Positions 26,502 to 46,500 of a stretch of DNA of 64,000 bases are shown here, piece by piece (the stretch's first letter is position 1; each line of letters begins with the position of its first letter). The notes under the pieces are model-generated. The model did not search any database. It worked only from the letters and a program-made list of their open reading frames with translations, and had not been told where the DNA came from. Made by a program: the position numbers and the translations under genes. The stretch is taken from NCBI RefSeq assembly GCF_012939955.1, contig NZ_SPMY01000019.1, positions 127,782 to 191,781 of the forward strand, given 5' to 3'. The stretch is from Candidatus Accumulibacter phosphatis (lineage in GTDB: Bacteria; Pseudomonadota; Gammaproteobacteria; Burkholderiales; Rhodocyclaceae).

Positions 26502-28853
26502 TCACCCATGCTTCATGGCCGGCCAGGTAATAGGGCGAAAGCGGGTGCCCGCTTTGCCCCCCCCGGCATATGAAAAAATCGCGCGCTCTTCATGGCCGGG
26601 AGAAACAACCATACGTTCCGAGGAGCCAAACGAAGGCCCGGCGACTCGCGGCATGTTCACATCGCCATCGATGGCTTCAATCGGCGCGTCGAGGAATCTC
26701 CCGAGCGGTGGAATGAACTGACTCAGCGGGTGCTGAATCGCCGCCCTATTGCGCGCTCCCCAGGTGGCCTGCGCCAGCCGTTCCTGGCTGTCGATGCCCA
26801 GGGAATGCAAGCTCGTTTTCAAGACCTCGCGCTCGAACTCGCGCCACGAAGCAAACGGTGCCGGCAAGAGGTGAGCGGGCTTTTTCTGGATCACTTCCCA
26901 CAGCACGCCCTCCCACTGGTTCGACAGCGATCCGATCTGGAGATCGGGTTGCACTTCATAGGCCGCCGCCAGCCAGGCCATGAACAGCGTGTCACGCAAC
27001 AAGTAGCGATAAGCCCTGACGACGCGGTAGGCCACTGAATCACGGTGCGCCCGCAACTCCTTTTCGGAGCGCAATTGAACGAGCAAAGCCTTCGCCACGT
27101 CGTCCTGCGTATCGCCTTCGTCGGCCAGCAACTGTTCCAGATGAGCTTTCCAGCGCTCCAGCAACAAACCGCGATCATCGAGAGCGATGGCCAGAAAATC
27201 GCCTTCAGCGAAGGAATCACGGGCGAACAAGGCATCACGGATTTGTTTGGCGCGCGCGCCGAGGTCATAGCCAGCGTTGCCGATGCGCCTGAGCATCTCG
27301 CCCGAGGCAACGCGGTTGTTTGCGGTCCATAAGCGGCCGTCGGCCGGATTCATCAGCAGCGGGTATTCATCCGCGGCCAGATAGCCTTGCCACGAACACG
27401 AACCGTCCGCGAAGCTGACCGGTTCGTCACCATCACACCCGACGCGCTTGGGAATGGCGCCAATGATCGTCCATGCCAGATTGCCGCCGCTGTCGACCAG
27501 CAGGATGTTTTGCGACGGCAGGCGTGCCTTCTTGGCAACGCCGATCGCCTCGACGACATTCTCCGTTCTCTCCAGGCCAAGAATGCCCAAATTGACGGCT
27601 TGCGTGACGTCATGGGCCAACCATTTGAGCACGAACTTTCGACCATCCGCGCCGCGCTGGGCAACCGGCCCCCAGATCGTCTTTTCAATAGCCACCCGCT
27701 GCGCGGGCTCGCCTTTGACGTCGATGGTTTCGTAAACCGTTTCCAGGGGCACTTCGCCGTGCGCAGTCAGGTAGCTTCCAGGACTCTCCTGCTCAAGGAC
27801 AATCACGTCGCTGAAGTCGCCGTAGCTATTGGTGTAGCCCCAGGCGATCTTTCCGTTGCTGCCGGCGACGACAAGCGGCACCCCTGGCAAGGAAACACCG
27901 GTCACCCGATGCGCGTAGCGCTTCCGCAACTGCTCATCTTCCCCATAGCGAATCTGAATACGAAACCAGATGTTCGGCACCCGCAACTTCAAGTGCATGT
28001 CATTCTGCAGAATCGCCGCACCGTTATCGCTCAAGTCACCCGACACAGCCCAGCTATTGCTCCCCGGCAGCGGTGGATCCGGACGCTCGCGAATTTTCAG
28101 CGGCAGTTCCAGCTTTGCGGACCAGTTCCCCAGGCTGGACGCCTCCGGAATGGCAGGCGGCAGCAGCGGCTCACCCCATAGTGGCGCGTCCCACTCGCTG
28201 CCTTTGCCGCGCACGAAAGCATAAAGCGACCCGGGAACCCGTTCCTTCACGTTCAGCCGGGTCAGCTTCTTCTCGGCTGTGGACGGCTGCAGGACCAGGT
28301 ACATCGAGTACGCCGTCAGTATCGTGTCCTCGGCCGTCCAGTCGACGGGCTCTGCGCGCAGCACCCAGTATTCGAACGGCTTGGAAGCGAGGCGATGCAG
28401 GCCCTCGTTCACACCCGCCACATAGGCCAACAGAATCTCCGACTCGTCGCTGGCAAGCCCGGCAACGATGGCGCGTGCCCGCGTACGCAGTTGATGAATA
28501 CGAACGCCCTTGTCGGCCGCCAGCGCCATGCCGCCAAACAACGCCGACAACTCGCCGGCCGCCTGACGGCGCATCAAATCCATCTGGAAAAATCGCTCCT
28601 GCGCGTGCACGAAGCCCATCGCCCTGGCCACGGCGGGACGGCTGTTCGCGGAAAGGGTCACCATGCCCACTTCGTCGCGCGTGACGCTGACCTCCTCATC
28701 CAGTTCGGCTAGCGCCACTACGCCATCGAGAGTCGGCAAGCTGGCACGCAGTTGCCGATAGGCCCACGAGGCGCATAACGCAGCCAGCAGCAGCCCCGCC
28801 AGGAGGAGCATGCACAAAACCCCGCGAGTGGAGAACTTCGATTGTTTCTGCAT
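26502..28853 (-). CDS. Penicillin acylase family Ntn-hydrolase
   Basis: About 783 residues starting MQKQSKF. An N-terminal membrane or signal segment (VLCMLLLAGLLLAALCASW) is followed by the alpha-chain region (HAQERFFQMDLMRR) and the autoprocessing site GSNSWAVSG. There the Ser after Asn becomes the N-terminal nucleophile of the beta chain. A later NNRVASGE supplies oxyanion residues. Such enzymes cleave amides such as acyl-homoserine lactones or penicillins; the substrate here is unknown. An in-frame ATG 66 bases upstream would lengthen the N-terminus but has no clear ribosome-binding site. Confidence 0.88.
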   Translation of the reverse strand: MQKQSKFSTRGVLCMLLLAGLLLAALCASWAYRQLRASLPTLDGVVALAELDEEVSVTRDEVGMVTLSANSRPAVARAMGFVHAQERFFQMDLMRRQAAGELSALFGGMALAADKGVRIHQLRTRARAIVAGLASDESEILLAYVAGVNEGLHRLASKPFEYWVLRAEPVDWTAEDTILTAYSMYLVLQPSTAEKKLTRLNVKERVPGSLYAFVRGKGSEWDAPLWGEPLLPPAIPEASSLGNWSAKLELPLKIRERPDPPLPGSNSWAVSGDLSDNGAAILQNDMHLKLRVPNIWFRIQIRYGEDEQLRKRYAHRVTGVSLPGVPLVVAGSNGKIAWGYTNSYGDFSDVIVLEQESPGSYLTAHGEVPLETVYETIDVKGEPAQRVAIEKTIWGPVAQRGADGRKFVLKWLAHDVTQAVNLGILGLERTENVVEAIGVAKKARLPSQNILLVDSGGNLAWTIIGAIPKRVGCDGDEPVSFADGSCSWQGYLAADEYPLLMNPADGRLWTANNRVASGEMLRRIGNAGYDLGARAKQIRDALFARDSFAEGDFLAIALDDRGLLLERWKAHLEQLLADEGDTQDDVAKALLVQLRSEKELRAHRDSVAYRVVRAYRYLLRDTLFMAWLAAAYEVQPDLQIGSLSNQWEGVLWEVIQKKPAHLLPAPFASWREFEREVLKTSLHSLGIDSQERLAQATWGARNRAAIQHPLSQFIPPLGRFLDAPIEAIDGDVNMPRVAGPSFGSSERMVVSPGHEERAIFSYAGGGKAGTRFRPITWPAMKHG

Positions 28854-29280
28854 GGAACGAAGTCTTTGAGTTCGACCGACAAACCAGTCTAGCAAAACAC
28901 CGCGAGAACAGTGCCGCATTGACGCGCATGCTCGGGTAGTCGGCGAGCGCGCATCTCATCCTCGCCGCCAATCTCTGACGAATTCAGACGACTGCAGACG
29001 ACTGCAGACGACTGCCGACGGCTGCTGCCGTTTGGCATGCTGCTGCGCTACGAAGAGCGCGTGGGCGATCACCCGTGTGGACGAAAAACCTAGCTTCCGA
29101 TAGGCTGCTTCGCGGTGCGTGTTTTCATCGCCTTGCAGGCCTGCCGGGGGTATGAAATAGTCGTATCGGCACGCGGCCACCAAGCAAGCGCCGAATAGCC
29201 GCCTTGGAGAAAGTACTGAGTGTGCCCATAGGGGAACATCCGGCTCCTGAAGTTTTCATCAAATTGCGAGAAAATCACTC
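28854..29280. other. Intergenic region before the patatin lipoprotein
   Basis: About 430 bp with no credible gene. It contains three copies of a 10-bp direct repeat (28985-29014) and presumably the divergent promoters for the acylase and the lipoprotein gene, but no strong -35/-10 pair stands out. Confidence 0.5.
28985..29014 (+). repeat. Ten-base tandem repeat CAGACGACTG x3
   Basis: Three perfect direct copies of CAGACGACTG are followed by a decayed CCGACGGCTG copy. Ten bases is one helical turn, so a protein-binding array is conceivable but unproven. Confidence 0.85.
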
Positions 29281-30597
29281 ATGAAAGCCCTCATCCTCGG
29301 CCTCACAGTGGCCATATTGCTTCTTGTCCAGGGCTGTTCGACGCCGCAGCGCCTGGCGGCAGTGCCCTACGAACTGACGGCAAAGGCCGAAATTCCAGGC
29401 ATGCCAAATGTTCGTTTTGCTTTGGGAGGCGACATCACAGAGCTCTCCCGGACGGCGCAGGCATCCCTGCAACTGGAAAAGGATTACCTCGCAAAACAGG
29501 GGCATAAAGGTCCCTTTCCCCCGGCGTTCTTTTTGGCAATATCAGGTGGCGGCGATAACGGCGCGTTCACCGCCGGGCTGATCAATGCGTGGACGGCAAC
29601 CGGGACGCGTCCGGAATTCAAAGTGGTTACCGGCATCAGTACCGGCGCCCTGATTGCGCCTTTCGCATTTGTCGGCTCAAAGTATGACGCCACGCTGAAG
29701 GAGGTCTATACCACGATCTCGCCGAAAGACGTCCTTACGCCGCGTGGTTTTCTGGCTGGCGTGATGAGCGACGGAATGGCCGATAACGCGCCACTGATGA
29801 GTCTGACGCGAAAATCCGTGACCGATGATTTTCTCAGGGAAGTCGCCGCGGAGTATGCAAAAGGTCGTTTCCTCCTGATCGCTACCGCCGACCTCGATGC
29901 GCGTCGTCCGATCATCTGGGACATGGGGAAAATCGCCACTTTCGGGGGCCCGAAGGCATTGGACCTGTTCGTGCGCGTCATGATCGCATCGGCCTCGATT
30001 CCGGGTGGCTTTCCTCCGATGATGCTTGATGTGGAAGTCGACGGCAAAACCTATCAGGAAATGCACGTCGATGGTGGCATCATGGCTCAGGTCTTCGCTT
30101 ACCCGGCCGCGCTGCGCATCAACGAGTCGGCCGCCGCCGTCGGCATTACCCGTGCGCGCATACTTTACGTGATCCGCAATGCGCGACTCGATCCGGACTG
30201 GGCACAGGTTGAGCGCAGTACGATGAGTATTGCCGGTCGCTCAGTCGCCTCACTGATCCACAGCCAGGGCATCGGTGACCTTTACCGCATCTATGCCACC
30301 ACCCAGCGCGACGGAGTGGACTTCAACCTTGGCTTCATTCCATCGAGTTTCAAGGCAGAGCACAAGGAAGAGTTCGACACCGAATATATGCGAGCACTGT
30401 ACAAAACTGGTTACGAGATGATGCTAAATGGCTTCCCGTGGCTCAAGGTTCCCCCCCGGATTCAGTCCACCGAGCGCGCCAGTAGCTGGAAAATAGCAAG
30501 TAGCAAGCCAGACACAATGGGCCAAGAAACCCAGGAAAATCCCATTTCACGTCCGCCGGTGGCGACCAGTTTCAGCTTGGCCTCGACAGCCAGATGA
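29281..30597 (+). CDS. Patatin-like phospholipase lipoprotein
   Basis: The 438-residue lipoprotein has a lipobox LVQGC (Cys near 19) and a patatin core: SGGGDNGAF (oxyanion loop), VTGISTGAL (GxSxG nucleophile) and VDGGIMAQ (catalytic Asp). It should be a lipid acyl hydrolase anchored in the envelope. The last 40 residues after KVPPR look random and follow a seven-C run (30451-30457). With one C fewer the protein would end near 30495 as PPGFSPP..., a more natural C-terminus. Confidence 0.86.
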   Translation: MKALILGLTVAILLLVQGCSTPQRLAAVPYELTAKAEIPGMPNVRFALGGDITELSRTAQASLQLEKDYLAKQGHKGPFPPAFFLAISGGGDNGAFTAGLINAWTATGTRPEFKVVTGISTGALIAPFAFVGSKYDATLKEVYTTISPKDVLTPRGFLAGVMSDGMADNAPLMSLTRKSVTDDFLREVAAEYAKGRFLLIATADLDARRPIIWDMGKIATFGGPKALDLFVRVMIASASIPGGFPPMMLDVEVDGKTYQEMHVDGGIMAQVFAYPAALRINESAAAVGITRARILYVIRNARLDPDWAQVERSTMSIAGRSVASLIHSQGIGDLYRIYATTQRDGVDFNLGFIPSSFKAEHKEEFDTEYMRALYKTGYEMMLNGFPWLKVPPRIQSTERASSWKIASSKPDTMGQETQENPISRPPVATSFSLASTAR

Positions 30598-35676: not shown

Positions 35677-38203
35677 TCATCCCGCGGAGCCGTCGACCGC
35701 CACTTTGTTGGCCCGCTCGCTGGTCGCCACCGCGTACATTCGCCCGGTCTCGTCGACCAGCGCAGTGGCAGTCATCCATACGTCCAGCAGCGCACCGTCC
35801 CTGGTCAAGCGTTGCGTCCTGTGCGGTTCGAGCACTTCGGCACGGCTCAAGCGACGGATCCGCGTCAAGGCCTCCTCGCGCAGTTCCGGAGGGATGCGGT
35901 CGCGAACGTTCATCTGCAGCGCCTCGGCCTCACTCCAGCCATACATCTTCACCGCCGCCGGGTTCCAGGACAGGATGTGGCCTTCCAGGTCCTGGACGGT
36001 GATCGCGTCGGACGCGTCGTGGACAACGACGGCCAGGCGGCGAAGCTGCGCATTGGCCTGGGTGAGCGAGTCCTCCAGCCGTTTCATTTCGGTGATGTCG
36101 ACAAAGGTGATCACTGCGCCGCCAATCACGTTGTCCAGGGTGCGATACGGTCGGATGCGCATCAGGTACCACAGGCCATCGACGGTCTGTACCTTGGCGT
36201 CCTGGAGTGTCAGGGTGTCGATGACCGTCTGCACGTCGCTCACCAAACGGTCGTAGCCGACCAGTTTGGCGGCGAAGTGCGCCACCGGGCGGCCAATATC
36301 GTTCGGGATGAGGTTGATGATCGACGAGGCGGCCGGAGTGAAGCGCAGGATGCGCAGTTGCGCGTCCACGAAGATTGTCCCGATGCCGGTGCCGGCAAGC
36401 AGGTTGTTCATGTCGTTGTTGGCCTGCGACAAATCGCCGACCTTGGCTTGCAGCTCGCTGTTGACCGTCGCCAGTTCCTCGTTGAGCGATTGCAATTCTT
36501 CCTTGGAGGTCTCCAGTTCTTCGTTGGTCGATTGCAGCTCTTCGTTGACCGACTGCATTTCCTCGTTCGACGAGCGGAGCTCCTCGTTGGCGGTCTCGAG
36601 TTCCTCCTGCATGCTCTGGAGGTATTCGTCCTTGGCCCGGAGTTCCTCTTCGATGGCCGCGATGCGGGCGTCGCTGTCCGCTTCGCTGTGCTCGCCTGCC
36701 GCTTCGGCGCGCCCGGCGCCGGCGCCGATCGGCAGGGCCGCCTGCGGCGGCACTTCGGGATCGGCCGCGGCGGCGTCCACGAAGAGGAGCAGGTACAGGG
36801 GCGCCTGCGCTGTCGCGGCCGGGCCGGTGGTCAGCGGGTGAATGCTCAGGTTGACACGCGTAAAATCGCCGTTGCTCTTGACCTGCAGCCCGGTGGCGCG
36901 GACGGCGGCCTTGCTGCAAATCGCCTGATGCAGGCCCTTGCTCAGTTCGTGTTGCAGCCCCTGGCGGGCCATCTTGATGACGTTGTTGACGCCAGATTCA
37001 CCGGGCTGCGGCTCGAGGTAAGCGCCGCAGCGGCCGTGCAGGTAGAGAAGGTCGCCCTGCGCGTTGACCAATGCACAGGCCGGCGCGACGTGCTGCAGGA
37101 TGGCTTGTTCGGTGACCTCGCGCAGCGGCACCTTCATCGGAAAGGCCGCCCGTGCAGCGCTACGGTAGCGTGCCGGCCGGGACGGCAGAAACCAGCCCAG
37201 GCCCGGGCGTGCCGCGCCAGTAAACCCCTCCTTGCGCTGGTAAAGCTTCGCCTTGCTGTCCACCACGGCAAACAGATCGGTGAAATTGCCGATGCTTTCC
37301 GACGTGCCGAGGAACAGGACGCCGTCGGGATTCAGCGCGTAATGGAACAGGGGAATGACTTTCTGCTGCAACTCCTGGCCGAAATAGATCAGCAGATTGC
37401 GACAGCTGATCAGGTCCAGCCGCGAGAACGGTGGATCCTGGCAGACGTCCTGCTCGGAAAAGATCAACAGGTCACGCACGCTCTTGTTGATCACGTAAGC
37501 ACTGCCATCCGGTTCCCGGGTAAAGAAACGCGCCAGGCGCTCCGGCGACACGTCGCTGGCGATGCTCGCCGGATAACGGCCAGCGCGCGCGGTCGCCATC
37601 GCCCGGGCGTCGATGTCGGTGGCAAAAAGCTGCACGGCGTACCGGCGCTCGTTCGCTTCCATCTGTTCGAGCAGCAGGATGGCGATCGAATAGGCTTCCT
37701 CGCCGGTGGAGCATCCCGGTGCCCAGACGCGGACCACCTCGCCATCGGGCTTGTTGGCGAACAACGGCGGGATGATCCGTCCGGCAAGGACCTTGAAGGC
37801 CTCCGGATCGCGGAAGAAGCTGGTCACGCCGATCAGCAGGTCGGCAAACAGCGCCTCGATTTCTTGCGCTGTCTTCTGCAGGTACTGGACGTAGCCGTCG
37901 AGCGCCTCGATCTGGTGCAGGCTCATGCGGCGCAGAATGCGGCGGTGGATACTGCTCATCTTGTATTGCGAAAAATCGTGGCCGGTCTGCGCGCGCACCA
38001 GGACGAAGATTTTTTTTAAGCGCGTCCCGGATCTTGGGTGCCGGTTCGGCAAGCAGCGGAGCCAGCCGGCCAAAGGCGTGCGTCGCGTAACTGATGATCT
38101 GGGCAGGCATCTCGGCCGGCGGCAGCTGCCAATCCACCAGGCCGGTGGCGATGGCGCTGCGCGGCATGCCGTCAAAAGTGCTGGAGCCAGGCTCCTGGGC
38201 CAT
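35677..38203 (-). CDS. CheR-type methyltransferase with PAS sensors; CheB part truncated
   Basis: The reconstructed chain is about 841 residues. It begins with only the last 45 residues of a CheB methylesterase (GMPRSAIATGLVDWQLPP). It continues with CheR (MSSIHRRILRRM, SAM site APGCSTGEEAYS, SCRNLLIYF), a long coiled-coil of repeated EELQS/NEEL units and two PAS domains. Family members are CheB-CheR-PAS hybrids. An extra base in the eight-T run 38010-38017 breaks the frame between CheB and CheR. The missing CheB sequence is replaced by repeat copy B. It may signal with the GGDEF-EAL protein encoded next to it. Confidence 0.82.
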
Positions 38204-38286
38204 GACCCTCCCCCCCTTCCCCCCGGCCCTTCTCCCGCAGGGGGAGAAGAGAGGTTCGTGAGTCGCATACGCGACTTTCACATTAG
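38201..38286 (+). repeat. Dispersed intergenic repeat, copy B
   Basis: CATGACC...CCCGGCCCTTCTCCCGCAGGGG... followed by TTCGTGAGTCGCATACGCGACTTTCACATTA. It has the same two hairpins as copies A and C, in the same orientation. It marks the point where the CheB domain is cut. Confidence 0.85.
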
Positions 38287-39151
38287 GCGATTGCCGGAAA
38301 AGAACGTACCAGATTGCGCAGGATTTTCGGTCGGCTTCAAGGCGCGACAGCAGGCGCATAGTCGAACTATGTAACTGTTGTCGCAACACAGAAGACGGGC
38401 GAAAAGACAAGCAAGATGGTAGGTTCTTTGACAGAAATCGCCTTAAGCCCTGGTTCTTCTGCAAATCGCGCGGCATGAGGGCGATCCCGAACAGGCAGCA
38501 CACAGTGCACGACAAAGCAGATTTGGTCGAATGCTGTCCGCTGCGACGCCATTGCCCGATGCTCGGGGCAGCGCGAGCAAACACCAGCCTGGGCGGATTG
38601 CGGGCCGGGATTGCAGTGGCGACGGCGACAAAACCGTGCAATGGTGATGACAGCGCACCAGGAACAGAGCCGCTCATAAAAATTCTTGATCAACCCGGGG
38701 TTGACGTGTTCAGAGATGCTGATCATCCTGCCCCTGACGCTCAGGATTACGGTGATTTGTCGGCAAGATGCGGCGGATAGACTGATTGGCCCAAAAGGCG
38801 GCAATGAGGAGTAGACAGAAGCAGATCGCCTCGAAGCGATCTGTCGATCCATTACCGGCGTTACCCATCGATGCGACTTCAACAGCCTGTTCAGGCTTGC
38901 CCCGCGTGGCCATTTTCTTCGCGATGATCTCGTGCAAGCACGTGCAGCCTGTGAAATCACAAGCCAGCAGCGTCGAGCGAGCCAACAGAGAGGTGCTGGA
39001 AGCGTCAGGGCCCTCCCCTGACCATAATGAAGACTCGTAGACGGTTCATGGTGCCCCTGGATTTGATGCTTTTCCGGGGCTGCTGCCGTAGGCCGGTTGT
39101 TCGGCTCGTTTTGACAGGATTTTCGCTCGCCATCCGCGTGGAGGAAAGACG
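38287..39151. other. Non-coding stretch upstream of the patatin/TIR-like pair
   Basis: About 865 bp. Several short open frames on the minus strand have no family features, skewed composition and no ribosome-binding sites. A helix-rich 91-residue frame near 38710-38985 is the best of them but unconvincing. The stretch may be remnant mobile DNA joined to repeat copy B. Confidence 0.45.
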
Positions 39152-41755
39152 ATGAATTTCAAGGACAAGACCCCTGTCCAGTTCGCGAAGGAAGTGCTCG
39201 GTGGCCGCGAGATCTCGGTCGCCGAGTCGCGCAATCTGGTGAAGCAACTCAAGGACGAGCACGCCTTTGGGTACGCGCGCAAGGTCCTGGCGCGCGCGCG
39301 CAAGAGCCGGGTCGACGATGCGCAGCTGGCGATCTGGCTGCGCCAGCAACACGCCCTCTGCACCTACAAGGACCCCGACCTGCCGGCGTCGACGCGCTTC
39401 GACCTCGCACTCGAGATTCTCGCAACGGGCGAAGACCTCGGCGCGACGAAGGACCAGGAGACGCTGGGGCTTGCCGGTGCGATCCACAAGCGGATGTGGG
39501 AGGTCGACGGCCAGCGCGACCACCTCGAATGGTCACTCAGCTTCTACCGCCGCGGCTACGAGCTTGGCGTCGAGCCGGATGCAGGCTACACGGCGATCAA
39601 CGCCGCCTACGTCGCCGACCTGCTCGGCGTGGAGTCGGCGGCGGACGCTAAAGGCGGGCTGACCTCGCAGGCCGCCGCGGCGTATCGCAAGTTGGCGCGC
39701 ACCATTCGCGAGGACATCATCCAGACCCTCGTGCCGCTCGCGGAGGAGCCCGCAAACAAACTCATCACTGGGCAGTGGTGGTTCGTCTGCACCATAGCGG
39801 AGGCCTACTTCGGCCTTGCTCGCTACGACCAGGCGAGCGAATGGCTGCGCGAGGCGGCAGCGATCGAGAATGTCTCGGAGTGGGAGTTCCAATCGACGGC
39901 CCAGCAGCTCACGAAGCTGGCGCGGCTCCAATCCGCGGGCGAAGTGGACAGCGGCGAAACGTTCCGGAGTTCCCCGGCCGGCAGGACCTTGCTCGCCTTC
40001 CTCGGCAACGACGCGCTCGGCCTGCAATCGGCATACCTCGGCAAGTTCGGTCTCGCCCTCTCGGGCGGTGGCTTCCGCGCTTCCCTCTACCACATCGGAG
40101 TCCTCGCGCGGCTCGCGGAGCTCGATGTCTTGCGCAACGTCGAGGTCATCTCCTGCGTCTCGGGGGGTTCGATTCTCGGCGCCCACTACTACCTCGAGGT
40201 CCAGAAGCTGCTCGAGTCCAAGAACGACCTCGACATCACGCGCCAGGACTACATCGATATCGTCCGACGCGTGGCGCGGGATTTTCTGGCGGGTGTTCAA
40301 CGGAACATCCGTTGGCTTGTCGCCGCGTCCTTTCTCACCAACCTGAAGATGATCTTCCGCCCGAGCTACTCGCGCTCCGACCGGCTGGGGGAACTCTACG
40401 AGGAGTGCCTCTACGCACGCATTCAGGACGGCAAGGGGGGGAGCGAACGCTTCATGAAGGACCTGTTCGTGAAGCCGAAGGGCTGCGCGACGGACTTCAA
40501 CCCAAAACGCGACAACTGGCGTCGCAAAAACAAGGTGCCGACGCTGATCCTCAACGCGACGACGCTGAACACGGGTCACAACTGGCAGTTCACGGCGTCG
40601 TGGATGGGAGAATCGCCCTGGTCCGTCGACCCCGCGGTCGACGGGAACTACCGGCTGCGTCGGGTGTACTACGACGACGCGCAGGGCATCGAGATGAAGG
40701 ATGGCGAGCGACGCGGCGTCCGACTCGGAACTGCGGTGGCGGCTTCGGCCTGCGTTCCCGGCCTGTTCGAGCCGATCGTGCTGCGCGGCGTCTACGCGAA
40801 CAAGACGGTGCGACTCGTCGATGGCGGCGTGCACGACAACCAGGGTGTCGTCGGCCTGTTGGAGCAGGATTGCAATGTGCTGCTGGTGAGTGACGCGAGC
40901 GGGCAGATGGAGTCGCAGGATGAGCCGAGCAACAGCGTCATCGGCGTCCCCCTGCGCTCGAACAGCATCCTGATGTCGCGCGTGCGCGAAGCGGAGTACG
41001 ACGATCTGGTTGCGCGCCGAAGCACGTCGCTGCTGCGCGGCTTCATGTTCGTCCATCTCAAGAAGGACCTCGACGTGGAGGCGGTGAACTGGGCTGGCTG
41101 CGACGAGCCGATCGAGGCTTCGGACGACGCCCGCCCGGCCGAGCTCCGCGGCCCACGCACGCGCTACGGTATTCGCAAGAGCGTGCAGCGGCGGCTGGCG
41201 GCCATCCGAACCGACCTCGATTCGTTTTCGGATAGCGAAGCCTACGCGCTCATGGTCAGCGGCTACCGGATGACCGAATTCGAGTTTCCGCGCACCGTGT
41301 CGGGCTGCGAAGCACCTGCGGAGGAAGCCGTGCAGTGGCCGTTTCTCGCGGTCGAGCCGGCGATGGACCGCGCCGACGACTCCGGCAAGCTGATGGAGTT
41401 GCTCTCGGTGGCTGACCAGGGAGCATTCAAGGTCTGGAAGCTGTACCCGCCACTGAGGATTCTCGCTTGGATCCTTGTTGCTGTCCTCGCTGCCTGCGCC
41501 GCGTGGTGGCTGTGGGAGAAGCGCGACGAGGCGGTGATCACCTACCAGACAATCGGCGTTTCGCTGCTGGTCCTGATTGCGAGCACGGTTCTCGGCAAGA
41601 GCGTCATGCGCATCGTGCGCTTCCGCGAGACGGTGACGAAGATTCTCTTCGGCATCGGGATGGCGCTCATCGGCTTCTTCGTGGCGAAGATACACCTGGC
41701 TTTCTTCGACAAACGCTTCCTGAAGCTTGGGCGCATCAAGCGCTTGCTGCCGTAG
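39152..41755 (+). CDS. TPR/TRAFs-binding-like patatin phospholipase with C-terminal membrane helices
   Basis: The 867-residue protein has three parts. Residues about 40-260 form helical repeats resembling the TRAFs-binding/TPR-S region of bacterial conflict proteins (FYRRGYELGVEPDAGYTAINAA, then WWFVCTIAEAYFGLARYDQA...). Residues about 298-620 are a patatin domain: SGGGFRASLYHIG (oxyanion), SCVSGGSIL (nucleophile Ser near 337) and VDGGVHDNQG (Asp near 556). Residues about 768-850 contain three predicted membrane helices. The start follows GGAGGAAAGACG. A MPFG-type protein gene follows by 53 bp. Patatins serve as membrane-damaging effectors in CBASS and related immunity, so an effector role here is plausible inference. 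Confidence 0.88.
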   Translation: MNFKDKTPVQFAKEVLGGREISVAESRNLVKQLKDEHAFGYARKVLARARKSRVDDAQLAIWLRQQHALCTYKDPDLPASTRFDLALEILATGEDLGATKDQETLGLAGAIHKRMWEVDGQRDHLEWSLSFYRRGYELGVEPDAGYTAINAAYVADLLGVESAADAKGGLTSQAAAAYRKLARTIREDIIQTLVPLAEEPANKLITGQWWFVCTIAEAYFGLARYDQASEWLREAAAIENVSEWEFQSTAQQLTKLARLQSAGEVDSGETFRSSPAGRTLLAFLGNDALGLQSAYLGKFGLALSGGGFRASLYHIGVLARLAELDVLRNVEVISCVSGGSILGAHYYLEVQKLLESKNDLDITRQDYIDIVRRVARDFLAGVQRNIRWLVAASFLTNLKMIFRPSYSRSDRLGELYEECLYARIQDGKGGSERFMKDLFVKPKGCATDFNPKRDNWRRKNKVPTLILNATTLNTGHNWQFTASWMGESPWSVDPAVDGNYRLRRVYYDDAQGIEMKDGERRGVRLGTAVAASACVPGLFEPIVLRGVYANKTVRLVDGGVHDNQGVVGLLEQDCNVLLVSDASGQMESQDEPSNSVIGVPLRSNSILMSRVREAEYDDLVARRSTSLLRGFMFVHLKKDLDVEAVNWAGCDEPIEASDDARPAELRGPRTRYGIRKSVQRRLAAIRTDLDSFSDSEAYALMVSGYRMTEFEFPRTVSGCEAPAEEAVQWPFLAVEPAMDRADDSGKLMELLSVADQGAFKVWKLYPPLRILAWILVAVLAACAAWWLWEKRDEAVITYQTIGVSLLVLIASTVLGKSVMRIVRFRETVTKILFGIGMALIGFFVAKIHLAFFDKRFLKLGRIKRLLP

Positions 41756-41807
41756 CCCGGATTCCTCACCAAGGAGTCGATCAAGCCTTTGCCAAGGAGA
41801 GGTCACG

Positions 41808-43325
41808 ATGAGCCACGACAAGATCAACAAGTCCGACCCAAGCACAGGCCACGAAGCTTCACGGATCGAGGACCTCGAACGCACCTGCTTCGTCATCATG
41901 CCTTTTGGACTCAAGGAGGTCGCCGGACGAGAGGTCGATTTCACGGCGATCTACGAAAAGCTCTTCGAACCCGCAATCAACGCCGCAAGAACACCCGAAG
42001 GCGAGGCCTTGATTCCGAAGCGAACGGACATGGAGTCTTTTTCGGGCTCGATCAATCAGGACATGTTCGAGTACATCATGTACAGCCGCGTCGCCTTCGC
42101 GGACATCAGTGGCTTCAATCCCAACGTCTTCTACGAAATCGGCGCGCGGCACGCGACCCAGGAAGCGGGCACGGTCATCTTTCGACAGCAAGGACACTCG
42201 ATTCCCTTCGACATCGCCACGATCAAGGTCTTCGAGTACTGCGACCCGACCATCCCCGGTGCCGACGAGTCCCGCGACTTGATCACCAGGGTGCTCACCA
42301 ATACGCTCAAGCGAAATCGCCTCGACAGCCCGGTTCGCCTCGCTCTGCGCTGGCAATGGGGCGGCCAGCCGCAGCCACCCCGCGACAGCGGTGCACTGGC
42401 CTCTCCACCCGCTCAGTCTCACGATCCGCTGCGCCAGCAAGCTGCGACAAGCCAGGTTGCGCTGCAGGCGCTTCAGTCCGAGTGGCGAAAGCAGGAGGTC
42501 GAACACTTGCTGCGCGACGCAGAGGAAGCCGTTCGGGTCAACGAGTTGGAGACTGCCCGCATCCACTACTGGGCGGCGCTGCGCTTCGATCCCACGAATC
42601 TGTTGGCGCGCATGCGGCTGGGATTGGTTCTCAAGCAGCAGGGGCGCAACTATGACGCACTCGAAGAGTTCACGACCCTCAGCAAGCTGGCGCCGGACTA
42701 CGCGGAAGCGTGGAAGGAGAAGGGGATCGCCGAGGGGCTGATCGCGCGGATGATTCCTGCGGAGGCGCGGAAGAAGGCGAGCTGGATGCCCGACGGCTCC
42801 GCGTCACTGCAGCGCGCGACGCGGCTGAACCCCAACGACTTCGACGCCTGGGCCTCACTGGGGGGCGTCGAGAGCAAGGTTCGAAAAGACCCCGACGCCG
42901 CGTATCGCATGTACATGAAGGCAGCGGAGGTGTCCGACGGACACCCCTACCCGCTGCTCAACGCGATCAAGCTCGAAGCAGGACGGACGGGCAAGATCGA
43001 CTTGGGCCCCCTCGGCGACAGGCTCAAGCGCGCGGAATCGATGCGCAAGGCGCAGGCGCAAGCCACGCCTCCCGCAGATACGCCGTGGTGCTTCTACGAC
43101 CTTGCCGAGATCCATTTGTACCGCTGCGATCGTGACGGCTTCATCCGGCAGGTAGTGGCAGGGATCGAGTACTCGACGGCGACCTGGCAGCTGGAGACCT
43201 TTCGGAACACGCTGCAAGGCACTCTGGTCGACAATCACATCAACCTGCCCGGGCTGTCGGACGGGATTCGGCTTCTGGAAAAAGGGATCGAGAACCGGAA
43301 AGAACGCGAGCGTGAACGTTCATGA
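41808..43325 (+). CDS. MPFG-type TIR-like / nucleoside-deoxyribosyltransferase-like protein with TPR region
   Basis: The 505-residue protein starts at an ATG after AAGGAGAGGTCACG. Residues 26-160 form the domain CFVIMPFG ... IYEKLFEPAI ... DMFEYIMYSRVAFADIS ... NPNVFYEIGARHA. It is typical of TIR-like or nucleoside-2-deoxyribosyltransferase-like folds that precede TRAFs-binding/TPR-S repeats; Glu110 is in the usual catalytic place. Residues about 220-480 are TPR-like (ARIHYWAALRFDPTNLLARMRLGLVL and later ...PWCFYDLAEIHLYRCDRDGF). It is encoded with the patatin protein and shares its repeat type, so it may sense or produce a nucleotide signal for it. Function is inferred, not shown. Confidence 0.85.
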   Translation: MSHDKINKSDPSTGHEASRIEDLERTCFVIMPFGLKEVAGREVDFTAIYEKLFEPAINAARTPEGEALIPKRTDMESFSGSINQDMFEYIMYSRVAFADISGFNPNVFYEIGARHATQEAGTVIFRQQGHSIPFDIATIKVFEYCDPTIPGADESRDLITRVLTNTLKRNRLDSPVRLALRWQWGGQPQPPRDSGALASPPAQSHDPLRQQAATSQVALQALQSEWRKQEVEHLLRDAEEAVRVNELETARIHYWAALRFDPTNLLARMRLGLVLKQQGRNYDALEEFTTLSKLAPDYAEAWKEKGIAEGLIARMIPAEARKKASWMPDGSASLQRATRLNPNDFDAWASLGGVESKVRKDPDAAYRMYMKAAEVSDGHPYPLLNAIKLEAGRTGKIDLGPLGDRLKRAESMRKAQAQATPPADTPWCFYDLAEIHLYRCDRDGFIRQVVAGIEYSTATWQLETFRNTLQGTLVDNHINLPGLSDGIRLLEKGIENRKERERERS

Positions 43326-43569: not shown

Positions 43570-46500
43570 TCAATCCTTCCTGAACAAGCGGCCAATTATG
43601 CGCCGCCAGATGTTCAGAAAAATGCTGCGTTCCTGCCTCCAGGCCAGGAGTTCCTCGACAGCTCGCTCCGGAGTGGTGAATCGGCCCGTCTGCCGCGACA
43701 AATAGGCCGGATACATGATCAGTACGCCGGCGACGAGCTCATCGAGCGTTAGCGTGCGCGTGCGCCGAGGCGGCGGCATGAGGTCTACGGTCAGCCCCCA
43801 GCCGGCATAGAACGGCTGCCCGTAGCACACCACCTTCTTGCCACGCAACAGCGCTTCGAAGCCGGTCAGCGAAGTCAAGGAATGCACCTCGTCGACTTCA
43901 TGCAGCAAATCACTCATGGCCACGTCCACCACCACTTCGTCACACCAACGAGCGGCATCTTCCTCGTCCTCCCCCCTGACGGCGCAAGCCAGCCGCGACG
44001 TCTGGATGCGGCTTGTAGATCACATAGGCATCGGGACTGGCCAGGCGTACGGCGCGAAGCAGATCCCGGTTCCGGCGAATACCTGGGGCACCATAAGCGA
44101 GAGAAGCGTCCGATTCCACTTGGCCGGGTACCAGAATCACTCGCGTAAAAGGCGACCCCGCCGAACGCCCAGCGAGGGCAGCTGGGGAGTAGGCGGACGA
44201 CTGCGGCAGTGGCGCATGCTTGCGAGTGTGCGCTGGTCGACACCACCCTCCTCCGCCGACGTTGTACTTGGTCACCCCGGTCGAAACCAGGCGCTTCCGC
44301 AAGAGCTGCGCCCGCGCCAGCAAGTCCGCCTCGAAACTGCCGGTCTGCAACAGCACCTCAAGATCTGAAGGCCGCGTTGCATCGTAATAAATCCCTCGCC
44401 CGTCCATCACCCATGACAAGGGACGCACCAGATCCGCTCCCAGCCCCACCGAGCGCAGAAAGCCATCCTCGATCCTGACAATCCCGGTCTTTCCAGTATC
44501 AAAGGGAGGCGCCTGAACCAGCGCCTTGCGCCCCCCAGATTGCCACCACTGCCTGCTCAGGCAGGGCGTCAGCAGTGCCGGCAAAACGCACCCGGGACCC
44601 CTGAAAGAAATCTCTGACAATCGGCTTCTTCCAACCTGAAAAACCAATCGCCCCTATCTCAGGCGGAAAACGCTCACGCATCCGTCGCCGCAGACCCATC
44701 CAGTCGAGCAGGCGCTCCACTTCGCAGCGCTTGCCTGTTTCGGGATCAATATAGCGCGCATAGTCCACCAGCGTCGCATGCACCAGGCTCTCCAGCGGCA
44801 CCGGCTGGCGCCGCGAAGGCGCCTCGAGATCATCCACCGTGAGGCCCCAGCCGGCATAGAAAGGCATGCCAAAGCTGCGCACCCGCTTTCCCCAAAGCAA
44901 GCCCTCGAAACCCATTTGCGAGGTCACGACATAAACCGCCTCGGCATTCTCCACGAGCATCACCGGATGAACATCCTGCGCCAGAACACACACCCGGGGA
45001 TCCCTGGCCGAGGCGACGAGATCGAAGTGCCCCAGCTTGGTTCCCGCCGCCACCTCGGGATGGACTTTGAGTAGCACCTGGCAATCAGGATTCTCGGCCA
45101 ACGCGGCCGCCAGCATCGCGTGAAAACTGGATGCGTCGGCCAAGCCATAGCGGATCGAAGCGTCACCGACAGTTTGATCGACCGCCAACACGTAGCGCCG
45201 CGCCCCGACAAAGTGCGCGGCACTCACGCCTGATCCGGAGCATGGCGGTGTCGACGGACCGTCCCGGTCTTGAATGGGTGCCTGCAACGGCGGCAACCAT
45301 TCTCGAGCGTGGTTGTATTTCGACACCCTGGCCGCCCGCCAGCGCGCGATCAAAGCTTGCGCCCGGACCTGCCGGCCATCCGTCAGTGCGGTGGCGACCA
45401 GCCCTTCCAGGCGCGATGGATTGCTTGCGTCATAGTAGATGCCCAGATCGTCGACGACAATCGAAAGCGGCGGATCACTATTGCCCAGCCCTAGCGAGCG
45501 CAGGAACCCGTCTTCCAGGCGTACGAGCGGCATGCCAAGGCCTTTGGCGACTTTCTCTGCCTTCGCCGCACTCGGCTTGCGGCCCCAGGCAAGCACCCCG
45601 GAAAGCCCCTGCCTGTGCGTCGTCAGGCCCAGATACGTGACTTCCGCGTCAAGCAAGGCAGGAAGTCCCGGCAGGCGCGCCATGGCGCGCGACGTGGTGC
45701 CGAACACAGCCGTGGTCAAGGCTTCCGCCGAAAGCTCAACATTCAATCCCTGCTGCTGCCAGTTCCGCAGGAGCATGCGTTCTGCTGGCCAGTTGTGGCG
45801 ACTCCCTGCCAGCCGCCGGCTATTGGCATGATGATAGGGCATCAATCCGCTAGCCGTGCTGCCAAAACCTAGGCCACGAACACTTGACCACGATCCCAGA
45901 AAAGACTTCACCCAAGCCAGAAACAACAGCCCCGCGCTGGGCGGCGCCTGCAAGGCTCTCACCAGTTCGGACCAAGTTTGCAGTGGCACGGTCAGCAGCC
46001 GGGTTCCGTCCTGCCAGGACGCTTCAAATCGACGCCAATCCTGAAGTCTGAACGCCATTTCCGGGCCGCTCACCACCACCCATTGCACCCCTTGCGGCAC
46101 CGGCCCCGAAAATCCCGGCGCCGTGACCCACACATCGACGCGAGCACCAATATCGACCGCGCGACTGGAGCCCCCGTTGAACTGGTTGAAGCGCACCACC
46201 ACGCCATGCCCATCGATCTCACTACCCAGGCCCGAGCCGATCAGGCTGCCGCCGTTGCCAAGCACGCAGATGCCATGGGCACTTCTGTCCAACAGCCACT
46301 GAGCGAACTGCTCGCGCCACTCTCCTTGCATGAGTCGTACACGGCTCTTGATTTCACACGCCGGACAATTCGCGATTGGCGCTCCTGGCGGGTATCCCGC
46401 CTCAGTCAGCAGATCAAATGCCATCCGCTGCTGCGACCCAGCCAACTGCTCTGATGCCTGCACCAGGAACGGTCGATGCCGCTGTACCAACGGCCGCCCC

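What the first reader, a model, noticed from the sequence alone, without database searches (positions are those of the whole stretch)
39152..43325. Candidate two-gene conflict/defence module: TPR-patatin plus MPFG/TIR-like-TPR protein
Seen: a patatin domain with complete GGGxR, nucleophile and DGG motifs. It is preceded by TRAFs-binding-like helical repeats and followed by three membrane helices. It is encoded 53 bp upstream of a protein with a CFVIMPFG...NPNVFYEIG domain and the same type of repeats. Known: patatins (CapV) kill cells in CBASS, and MPFG-type TIR-like/NDT-like domains are often joined to TPR-S/TRAFs-binding regions in predicted nucleotide-signalling immunity. Inferred: protein two makes or senses a nucleotide-derived signal that releases the membrane-tethered phospholipase through paired repeat regions. 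I know of no described system with exactly this pairing.
Basis: partly seen in the sequence, partly recalled or inferred. Interest (0 to 1): 0.78.

Follow-up and report, generated by a model that had tools for sequence, protein, structure and literature searches.

The report
Patatin killer paired with nucleotide-cleaving partner
Two neighbouring bacterial genes look like a suicide-type immune module in which one protein makes or relays a nucleotide alarm and the other, a lipid-cutting enzyme that is probably membrane-anchored, answers it; the pairing recurs in unrelated bacteria, but its action is untested.

Summary
Both genes are real. P0001 (39152-41755): TPR-S (PF20308) + patatin (PF01734) + three hydrophobic C-terminal segments. 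P0002 (41808-43325): an MPFG domain + generic TPRs. The pair is accessory: 3 of 28 genus genomes have it, and in one the 4.3 kb unit has different neighbours. Of 51 P0001 relatives, 13 have an MPFG gene in the locus, about 90 times background, on either side; others have TIR or SIR2/TIR-like genes next door, and two fuse TIR to the patatin protein itself. The MPFG profile matches DNPH1 N-glycosidases, its invariant Glu falling on their YELG motif. Partners elsewhere carry the same TPR-S module, homologous to human ASK1. Against: P0002 lacks detectable TPR-S, so 'same repeats' is not borne out for this copy; 38 of 51 loci show no MPFG gene and 19 of 49 host genomes have no MPFG match. Best reading: Thoeris-like logic with a TPR-S receptor and a phospholipase effector. 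Signal, substrate and phage protection are untested. I recall a 2020 prediction that a TPR scaffold senses NAD+-derived signals (paper not held here). New variant of a known kind.

The parts
39152..41755 (+). P0001: TPR-S + patatin phospholipase + three C-terminal hydrophobic segments, 867 aa; predicted effector
39275..39610 (+). TPR-S domain (PF20308) of P0001, residues 42-153
   Evidence: E 4.2e-16
40052..40840 (+). patatin domain of P0001, residues 301-563; S337 codon at 40160, D557 codon at 40820
   Evidence: catalytic residues invariant in 44 of 44 aligned rows
41459..41698 (+). three hydrophobic segments, residues 770-849, predicted membrane anchor
   Evidence: hydropathy only; helices
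41808..43325 (+). P0002: MPFG (TIR/DrHyd-like) domain + generic TPRs, 505 aa; predicted signal maker or relay
41865..42362 (+). MPFG domain of P0002, residues 20-185; E110 codon at 42135
42540..42725 (+). generic TPR repeats of P0002, residues about 245-306
39009..43323 (+). 4.3 kb stretch shared at 89-91% nucleotide identity with G009 (L127) without similar adjoining flanks

Best explanation
A two-gene, signal-gated cell-suicide module, Thoeris-like in logic. Inferred: P0002 detects a trigger through its TPR part, and its MPFG domain (DrHyd/NDT/TIR class) cleaves the N-glycosidic bond of NAD+ or a related nucleotide with E110. Inferred: the product (an ADP-ribose derivative is the best guess) binds the TPR-S scaffold of P0001 and unlocks its patatin domain. 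Inferred: the phospholipase, anchored by its C-terminal segments, damages the inner membrane and stops the infected cell. Shown here: domain content, invariant catalytic residues, recurrent linkage, TIR fusions in relatives, and presence of the pair as one unit at two different sites.
For: TPR-S and patatin in P0001; catalytic residues invariant in 44 of 44 rows. MPFG profile matches DNPH1/Rcl N-hydrolases at E 3.7e-5, with the invariant Glu on YELG. MPFG gene in 13 of 51 loci; 13 matches in 573,788 bp against 0.14 expected from 63 matches in 254.8 Mb. Position varies (upstream, downstream, convergent) with at least 9 state changes on the tree. Other NAD+-class domains in the partner's place: TIR next door in L048, L065 and plasmid L154; SIR2_2 with a sub-threshold TIR_2 in L072; TIR fused to the patatin protein in L050 and L057. 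L045 adds TIR-NUDIX and MPFG-macro genes. Effector exchange beside MPFG-TPR-S genes: SLATT in L137, a separate CapV-like patatin in L129. Patchy in the genus, 3 of 28, and at two different sites.
Against: 38 of 51 loci show no MPFG gene and a 20-row Bacteroidota clade has none; 19 of 49 genomes have no MPFG match at E <= 1e-5 and 9 of 49 no TIR_2 match at E <= 0.001. P0002 has no detectable TPR-S. The P0002 model has pTM 0.40, and the Foldseek rows shown are TPR and other helical-repeat proteins and ASK1, no NDT or TIR. The scanned window neighbours are capsule, glycosyltransferase, CheR/PAS, GGDEF, methyltransferase, penicillin-amidase and LysR genes, not a defence island. No substrate, ligand or phage data. 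On plasmids MPFG-TPR-S proteins stand beside TIR genes, so MPFG may be a receiver, not a maker.
Confidence: 0.5

Rival explanations
1. Scaffold relay without diffusible signal: the MPFG domain only binds a nucleotide or is inactive, and P0002 switches on P0001 by direct contact through TPRs, as in an ASK1-type complex.
For: The TPR-S region of partner proteins is homologous to human ASK1 (5ulm, E 9.4e-16) and matches MAP3K_TRAF_bd; ASK1 ranks 4th for the P0002 model; MPFG-TPR-S proteins stand beside TIR genes on three plasmids.
Against: D74, N106, E110 and R114 are invariant in both MPFG alignments, which points to catalysis or tight ligand binding; P0002 itself has no detectable TPR-S.
Confidence: 0.2
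2. Two effectors: MPFG is a NADase-type killer and patatin a lipid killer, both triggered by something encoded elsewhere.
For: P0002 matches a PADLOC TIR effector model (PDLC00733, E 1.5e-9); 50 of 63 MPFG matches in 49 genomes lie outside the TPR-S-patatin loci.
Against: At its second site (G009) only the two genes are shared with the window's immediate surroundings, so no third gene travels with them there; TPR-S on the patatin suggests its own input.
Confidence: 0.14
3. Not immunity: an accessory membrane-lipid or stress-response pair.
For: 38 of 51 relatives show no MPFG gene in the locus; the scanned window neighbours are not defence genes.
Against: Patchy occurrence, a plasmid-borne relative, and association with TIR, SIR2 and nSTAND1 genes in some loci.
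Confidence: 0.12
4. Toxin-antitoxin-like pair in which P0002 restrains P0001.
For: Two close genes found together at two sites.
Against: Most relatives show no such partner; the partner is an enzyme-like domain rather than a small antitoxin.
Confidence: 0.04

Closest known systems
Thoeris (ThsB TIR + ThsA; start of the abstract of PMC11204291 seen in the listing, passages of PMC9503650)
   Same: Two genes; a TIR-class Rossmannoid enzyme beside an effector with its own receptor domain; NAD+-derived messenger proposed here by analogy.
   Different: Receptor is TPR-S, not SLOG or macro; effector is a patatin; the enzyme is an MPFG (DrHyd-like) domain with no TIR Pfam match.
CBASS with CapV phospholipase (recalled; CapV entries seen by name)
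   Same: Patatin effector thought to be gated by a nucleotide signal.
   Different: No CD-NTase among the 10 window genes given to Pfam; P0001 has no PADLOC match at E <= 1 and carries TPR-S.
TPR-S sensor systems (Pfam PF20308; Burroughs and Aravind 2020: title seen in a reference list, content recalled)
   Same: TPR-S + effector with a NAD+-class enzyme nearby; this is the kind to which the find belongs.
   Different: Here TPR-S sits on a patatin with membrane segments and the partner has generic TPRs; whether that paper lists this pairing could not be checked.
Human ASK1 (MAP3K5)
   Same: The TPR-S/TRAFs-binding region of partner proteins in other genomes is homologous (E 9.4e-16).
   Different: ASK1 is a kinase; P0002's own repeats do not match significantly.
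DNPH1/Rcl and nucleoside deoxyribosyltransferase
   Same: MPFG profile matches at E 3.7e-5 (DNPH1/Rcl) and 0.034 (NDT); Glu on YELG in the DNPH1/Rcl alignment.
   Different: P0002 is a larger multidomain protein; substrate unknown.

Membership tests
TPR-S-type predicted conflict system | PF20308 TPR-S domain over curated cut-off | tested here: met
   P0001, 59.8 bits against cut-off 27.6
TPR-S-type predicted conflict system | NAD+/nucleotide-processing type domain encoded next door | tested here: met
   MPFG domain with DNPH1 similarity 52 bp downstream; activity and substrate untested
TPR-S-type predicted conflict system | TPR-S binds a nucleotide signal | not testable with these tools
   needs biochemistry
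Thoeris | TIR-domain ThsB | tested here: not met
   P0002 has no TIR or ThsB_TIR Pfam hit at E <= 1; only a PADLOC effector model labelled TIR
Thoeris | ThsA effector with SIR2-SLOG or macro domain | tested here: not met
   neighbouring effector is TPR-S-patatin
CBASS | CD-NTase gene beside the effector | tested here: not met
   none among 10 window genes given to Pfam; not every ORF was scanned
CBASS | CapV-type phospholipase | tested here: not met
   P0001: no PADLOC family at E <= 1; top solved patatin is PlpD
Patatin-like phospholipase | GGGxR, catalytic Ser and Asp-Gly-Gly | tested here: met
   G305-R309, S337, D557; invariant in 44 of 44 rows except F308
TIR-DrHyd-SLOG class | sequence link to a catalysing member with active-site Glu | tested here: met
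   DNPH1/Rcl E 3.7e-5, Glu aligned; that this Glu is catalytic in DNPH1 is recalled
TIR-DrHyd-SLOG class | fold match in the PDB | tested here: inconclusive
   rows shown for full-length P0002 were TPR and other repeat proteins and ASK1; the domain alone was not searched

The most novel reading that the evidence does not exclude
A distinct, unnamed immune system type: an MPFG/DrHyd enzyme makes a NAD+-derived messenger that an ASK1-type TPR-S scaffold reads to release a membrane-tethered phospholipase. The same TPR-S-patatin core accepts interchangeable signal makers (MPFG, TIR, SIR2-type, even fused), and MPFG-TPR-S proteins accept interchangeable effectors (patatin, SLATT).
Probability: 0.42. 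Interest if true: 0.75.

Novelty: new variant of a known kind. Interest (0 to 1): 0.55.

Why it matters
If true, it adds a phospholipase output to NAD+-class signalling immunity, gives a testable ligand-binding role to TPR-S, a domain whose Pfam name calls it a sensor without proof known to me, and bears on how the regulatory region of animal ASK1 relates to bacterial conflict proteins. The minimal two-gene unit and the natural TIR fusions make it easy to test.

Tried and rejected
Rejected: housekeeping patatin (full-length homologs in 3 of 28 genus genomes). Rejected: CapV-CBASS membership. Rejected: a phage gene (no match in 50,697 phage records at E <= 1e-5). Led nowhere: empty-site search; the two flanks of the window turn up on different contigs in G011, and I saw no clean empty site (lists capped). 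Led nowhere: promoter scan (0 found) and terminator scan (3, fewer than shuffles); repeats at the unit ends (short matches only). Led nowhere: TPR-S detection in P0002. Literature: ten searches listed no paper whose title or abstract start describes this pairing; of the listed papers I read only passages of PMC8195603 and PMC9503650, and the library lacks most subscription papers, so this is weak.

Limits. The MPFG, TPRS and PAT profiles were iterated on the same loci that they then annotate. The enrichment uses genome sizes rounded to 0.1 Mb and treats matches as independent, though defence genes cluster and two loci are of the window's genus; the 13 in-locus matches (12 loci) were counted, not mapped by coordinates. 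The tree is a quick one with 19 of 50 inner branches weakly supported. Rows dropped: A1 holds 43 of 51 loci (not L050, L053, L069, L078, L081, L083, L086, L089); L078 was left out by the handle limit and L085 is not held; A3 holds 34 of 47 locus domains plus the window; A4 holds 103 of 202 neighbouring ORFs (102 of the 111 within 900 bases, and L045:3505) plus L091:10825 from outside that list. L045, L091 and L092 MPFG genes were put in by hand, so A4's TPR-S and MAP3K_TRAF_bd counts are not unbiased. Of the six TIR_2 matches five are traced (L048, L062, L065, L072, L091), one is not.
Full report
What is there. The window lies in a 5.04 Mb, 149-contig genome. Two same-genus genomes, G022 and G009, correspond by match and contig length to records of Candidatus Accumulibacter (L042, L043), so the genus is most likely Accumulibacter. 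P0001 (39152-41755, 867 aa) carries TPR-S (PF20308, E 4.2e-16) and Patatin (PF01734, E 2.6e-16) and three hydrophobic segments at its C-terminus. P0002 (ATG 41808-43325, 505 aa) carries an N-terminal MPFG domain, matched only by a PADLOC effector model labelled TIR (PDLC00733, E 1.5e-9), and generic TPRs. The ATGs at 39152 and 41808 each follow a purine-rich ribosome-binding-like stretch, by eye, and 52 bp separate the genes.

Accessory unit. Of 28 genus genomes, own included, 3 have a full-length P0001 (100, 92 and 87% identity), and in all three P0002 follows directly. G022 shares long flanks with the window; G009 shares 39009-43323 at 89-91% nucleotide identity but not the adjoining flanks (one other similar stretch, window 27009-28915, lies about 4 kb from the unit in G009). 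So the pair occurs as one 4.3 kb unit at two different sites. Matches to P0001 occur in 24 plasmid records at E <= 1e-5, but most of those listed cover the patatin part only and 1 covers at least 80% of the query; no phage record matches.

The effector. In 44 aligned sequences (P0001 and 43 of 51 relatives) the Gly and Arg of GGGxR, the nucleophile Ser and DGG are invariant. The AlphaFold2 model has mean pLDDT 85.5 and pTM 0.87; the top solved structure is the patatin PlpD (Foldseek E 1.7e-6, TM 0.70 by target length; sequence profile E 2.6e-6). Of 41 relatives with more than 220 residues after the patatin domain, 40 have at least two hydrophobic segments there; L082, L085, L088 and L091 have shorter tails without any, so membrane anchoring is usual but not universal.

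The partner domain. In 35 aligned MPFG domains F9, D55, N87, E91 and R95 (A3 numbering; E91 is E110 of P0002) are invariant. A profile of these finds DNPH1/Rcl 2'-deoxynucleoside 5'-phosphate N-hydrolases in the PDB at E 3.7e-5, nucleoside 2-deoxyribosyltransferase at 0.034, and weakly Cap12 (0.58) and ASK1 (0.62); in the Rcl alignments shown the invariant Glu falls on YELG, which I recall as the catalytic Glu. PMC9503650 (passages seen) groups TIR, DrHyd and SLOG as one Rossmannoid class acting on N-glycosidic bonds of nucleotides, TIR on NAD+. The P0002 model is only moderate (mean pLDDT 72.9, pTM 0.40), and Foldseek ranked TPR proteins first and ASK1 fourth (E 6.0e-5, TM 0.29 by query length); no TIR or NDT structure was among the 50 rows shown. 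The class assignment therefore rests on sequence.

Co-occurrence. A genome-contig scan gave 51 relatives of P0001; all 51 carry TPR-S-like and patatin regions by profiles built here (in L053 the TPR-S part is cut by the contig end). An MPFG domain lies in 13 of 51 loci: beside P0001's relative with no listed ORF of 100 aa or more between in 10 (L042, L043, L049, L056, L059, L060, L082, L085, L088, L092), with one or more genes between in 3 (L045, L065, L091). A further example, L122, came from the P0002 search. Many loci end at contig edges, so 13 is a floor. In 49 whole genomes (254.8 Mb) the MPFG profile matched 63 times at E <= 1e-5, in 30 of 49 genomes; 13 matches in 573,788 bp of loci against 0.14 expected gives a binomial 3.6e-22, to be read as strong enrichment, not as an exact probability. 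On a quick tree of 53 rows an MPFG gene is present in 15 of 33 rows of one part and 0 of 20 in a Bacteroidota clade, with at least 9 changes. The sides vary, which argues for repeated association.

Other enzymes in the partner's place. Adjacent genes carry TIR_2 in L048 and L065, and SIR2_2 with a sub-threshold TIR_2 in L072; L062 has a divergent TIR neighbour. On an Aliarcobacter plasmid a TIR gene ends 52 bp before the TPR-S-patatin gene and two more TIR genes lie downstream. In L057 and L050 TIR_2 is fused to the C-terminus of the TPR-S-patatin protein (E 4.4e-18 and 1.1e-8); in L048 the protein ends in DUF4062 and begins with an AAA_31/ParA-like domain. L045 has TIR-NUDIX, MPFG-macro and MPFG-TPR-S genes upstream. 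Counting MPFG in the locus, or TIR or SIR2 beside or fused, at least 17 of 51 loci are linked, 18 with the divergent L062. TIR_2 is common in these genomes (40 of 49; 327 matches in all), so TIR neighbours are weaker evidence than MPFG ones; the fusions do not suffer from this.

The partner's repeats. In many other loci the MPFG partner is about 443 aa; L060, L045 and L082 were given to Pfam and match MAP3K_TRAF_bd (PF13281, E 1e-46, 2.4e-50, 3.4e-40) and TPR-S. The TPR-S part of ten such proteins is homologous to that of the patatin protein (hhalign probability 96.2, E 2.4e-9) and to human ASK1 (5ulm, E 9.4e-16). P0002's C-terminal part shows no significant match to either set (E 0.062 and 0.13).

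Exchange of effectors. MPFG-TPR-S proteins also occur beside a SLATT-family protein (L137) and next to a CapV-like patatin whose ORF overlaps the MPFG-TPR-S gene by 4 bases (L129; CapV E 8.5e-13). On three plasmids (two conjugative, one mobilizable) an MPFG-TPR-S protein stands beside or between TIR genes, in one case with a DUF4231 gene near by (domains checked). L134 holds an MPFG-TPR-S gene and a TPR-S-trypsin gene within 20 kb.

Mechanism. I take the best-supported reading to be a signal-gated suicide module: P0002 senses and makes a nucleotide-derived signal; TPR-S of P0001 reads it; the patatin attacks the inner membrane. Shown: domains, invariant catalytic residues, linkage, fusions, two sites. 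Inferred: trigger, substrate, messenger, gating, target, immunity. Against it stand the MPFG-less majority (38 of 51 loci; 19 of 49 genomes without a match), the missing TPR-S in P0002, the moderate P0002 model, and window neighbours of capsule, glycosyltransferase, CheR/PAS and GGDEF type rather than defence genes. The MPFG protein may be a receiver or scaffold instead, as its place beside TIR genes on plasmids allows.

Novelty. Pfam's name for PF20308 already says sensor, and I recall that Burroughs and Aravind (2020) predicted a TPR scaffold recognising NAD+-derived signals and its use in ASK signalling; I saw only the title, in a reference list, as the paper is not held. The find is a new variant of that kind: a patatin with membrane segments as TPR-S effector with an MPFG partner, plus natural TIR fusions. 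Ten literature searches listed no paper on this pairing (see Tried and rejected for their limits).

Noticed in passing
window 38201-38446: Interspersed repeats just upstream of the pair: a 163 bp stretch (about 38283-38446) recurs at a dozen or so places in the own genome, nearly all at 96-98% identity, and an 85 bp stretch (about 38201-38286) in many genus genomes.
   Followed up: no
window 29281-30594: A second patatin gene (PF01734 E 1.6e-17; PADLOC phospholipase effector PDLC00758 E 2.5e-11) about ten kb upstream; Patatin was its only Pfam match.
   Followed up: no
L129 4813-7343; MPFG-TPR-S also in L130, L131, L132: A different two-gene arrangement in the family: CapV-like patatin overlapping an MPFG-TPR-S gene; the patatin was verified in L129 (= L017) only.
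   Followed up: partly
L045 753-8361: NAD/ADP-ribose-type cluster: TIR-NUDIX, MPFG-macro and MPFG-TPR-S genes, then TPR-S-patatin.
   Followed up: partly
L156 4013-7209: Escherichia coli IncP conjugative plasmid with an MPFG-TPR-S protein, two TIR genes and a DUF4231 gene on the other strand: a possible mobile relative without patatin.
   Followed up: partly
L048 1608-6350: AAA_31/ParA-like + TPR-S + patatin + DUF4062 in one 1580 aa reading frame.
   Followed up: no
window 43570-44647: Two short ORFs before the capsule synthesis gene look by eye like pieces of a second such gene; not scanned with Pfam, no PADLOC match.
   Followed up: no
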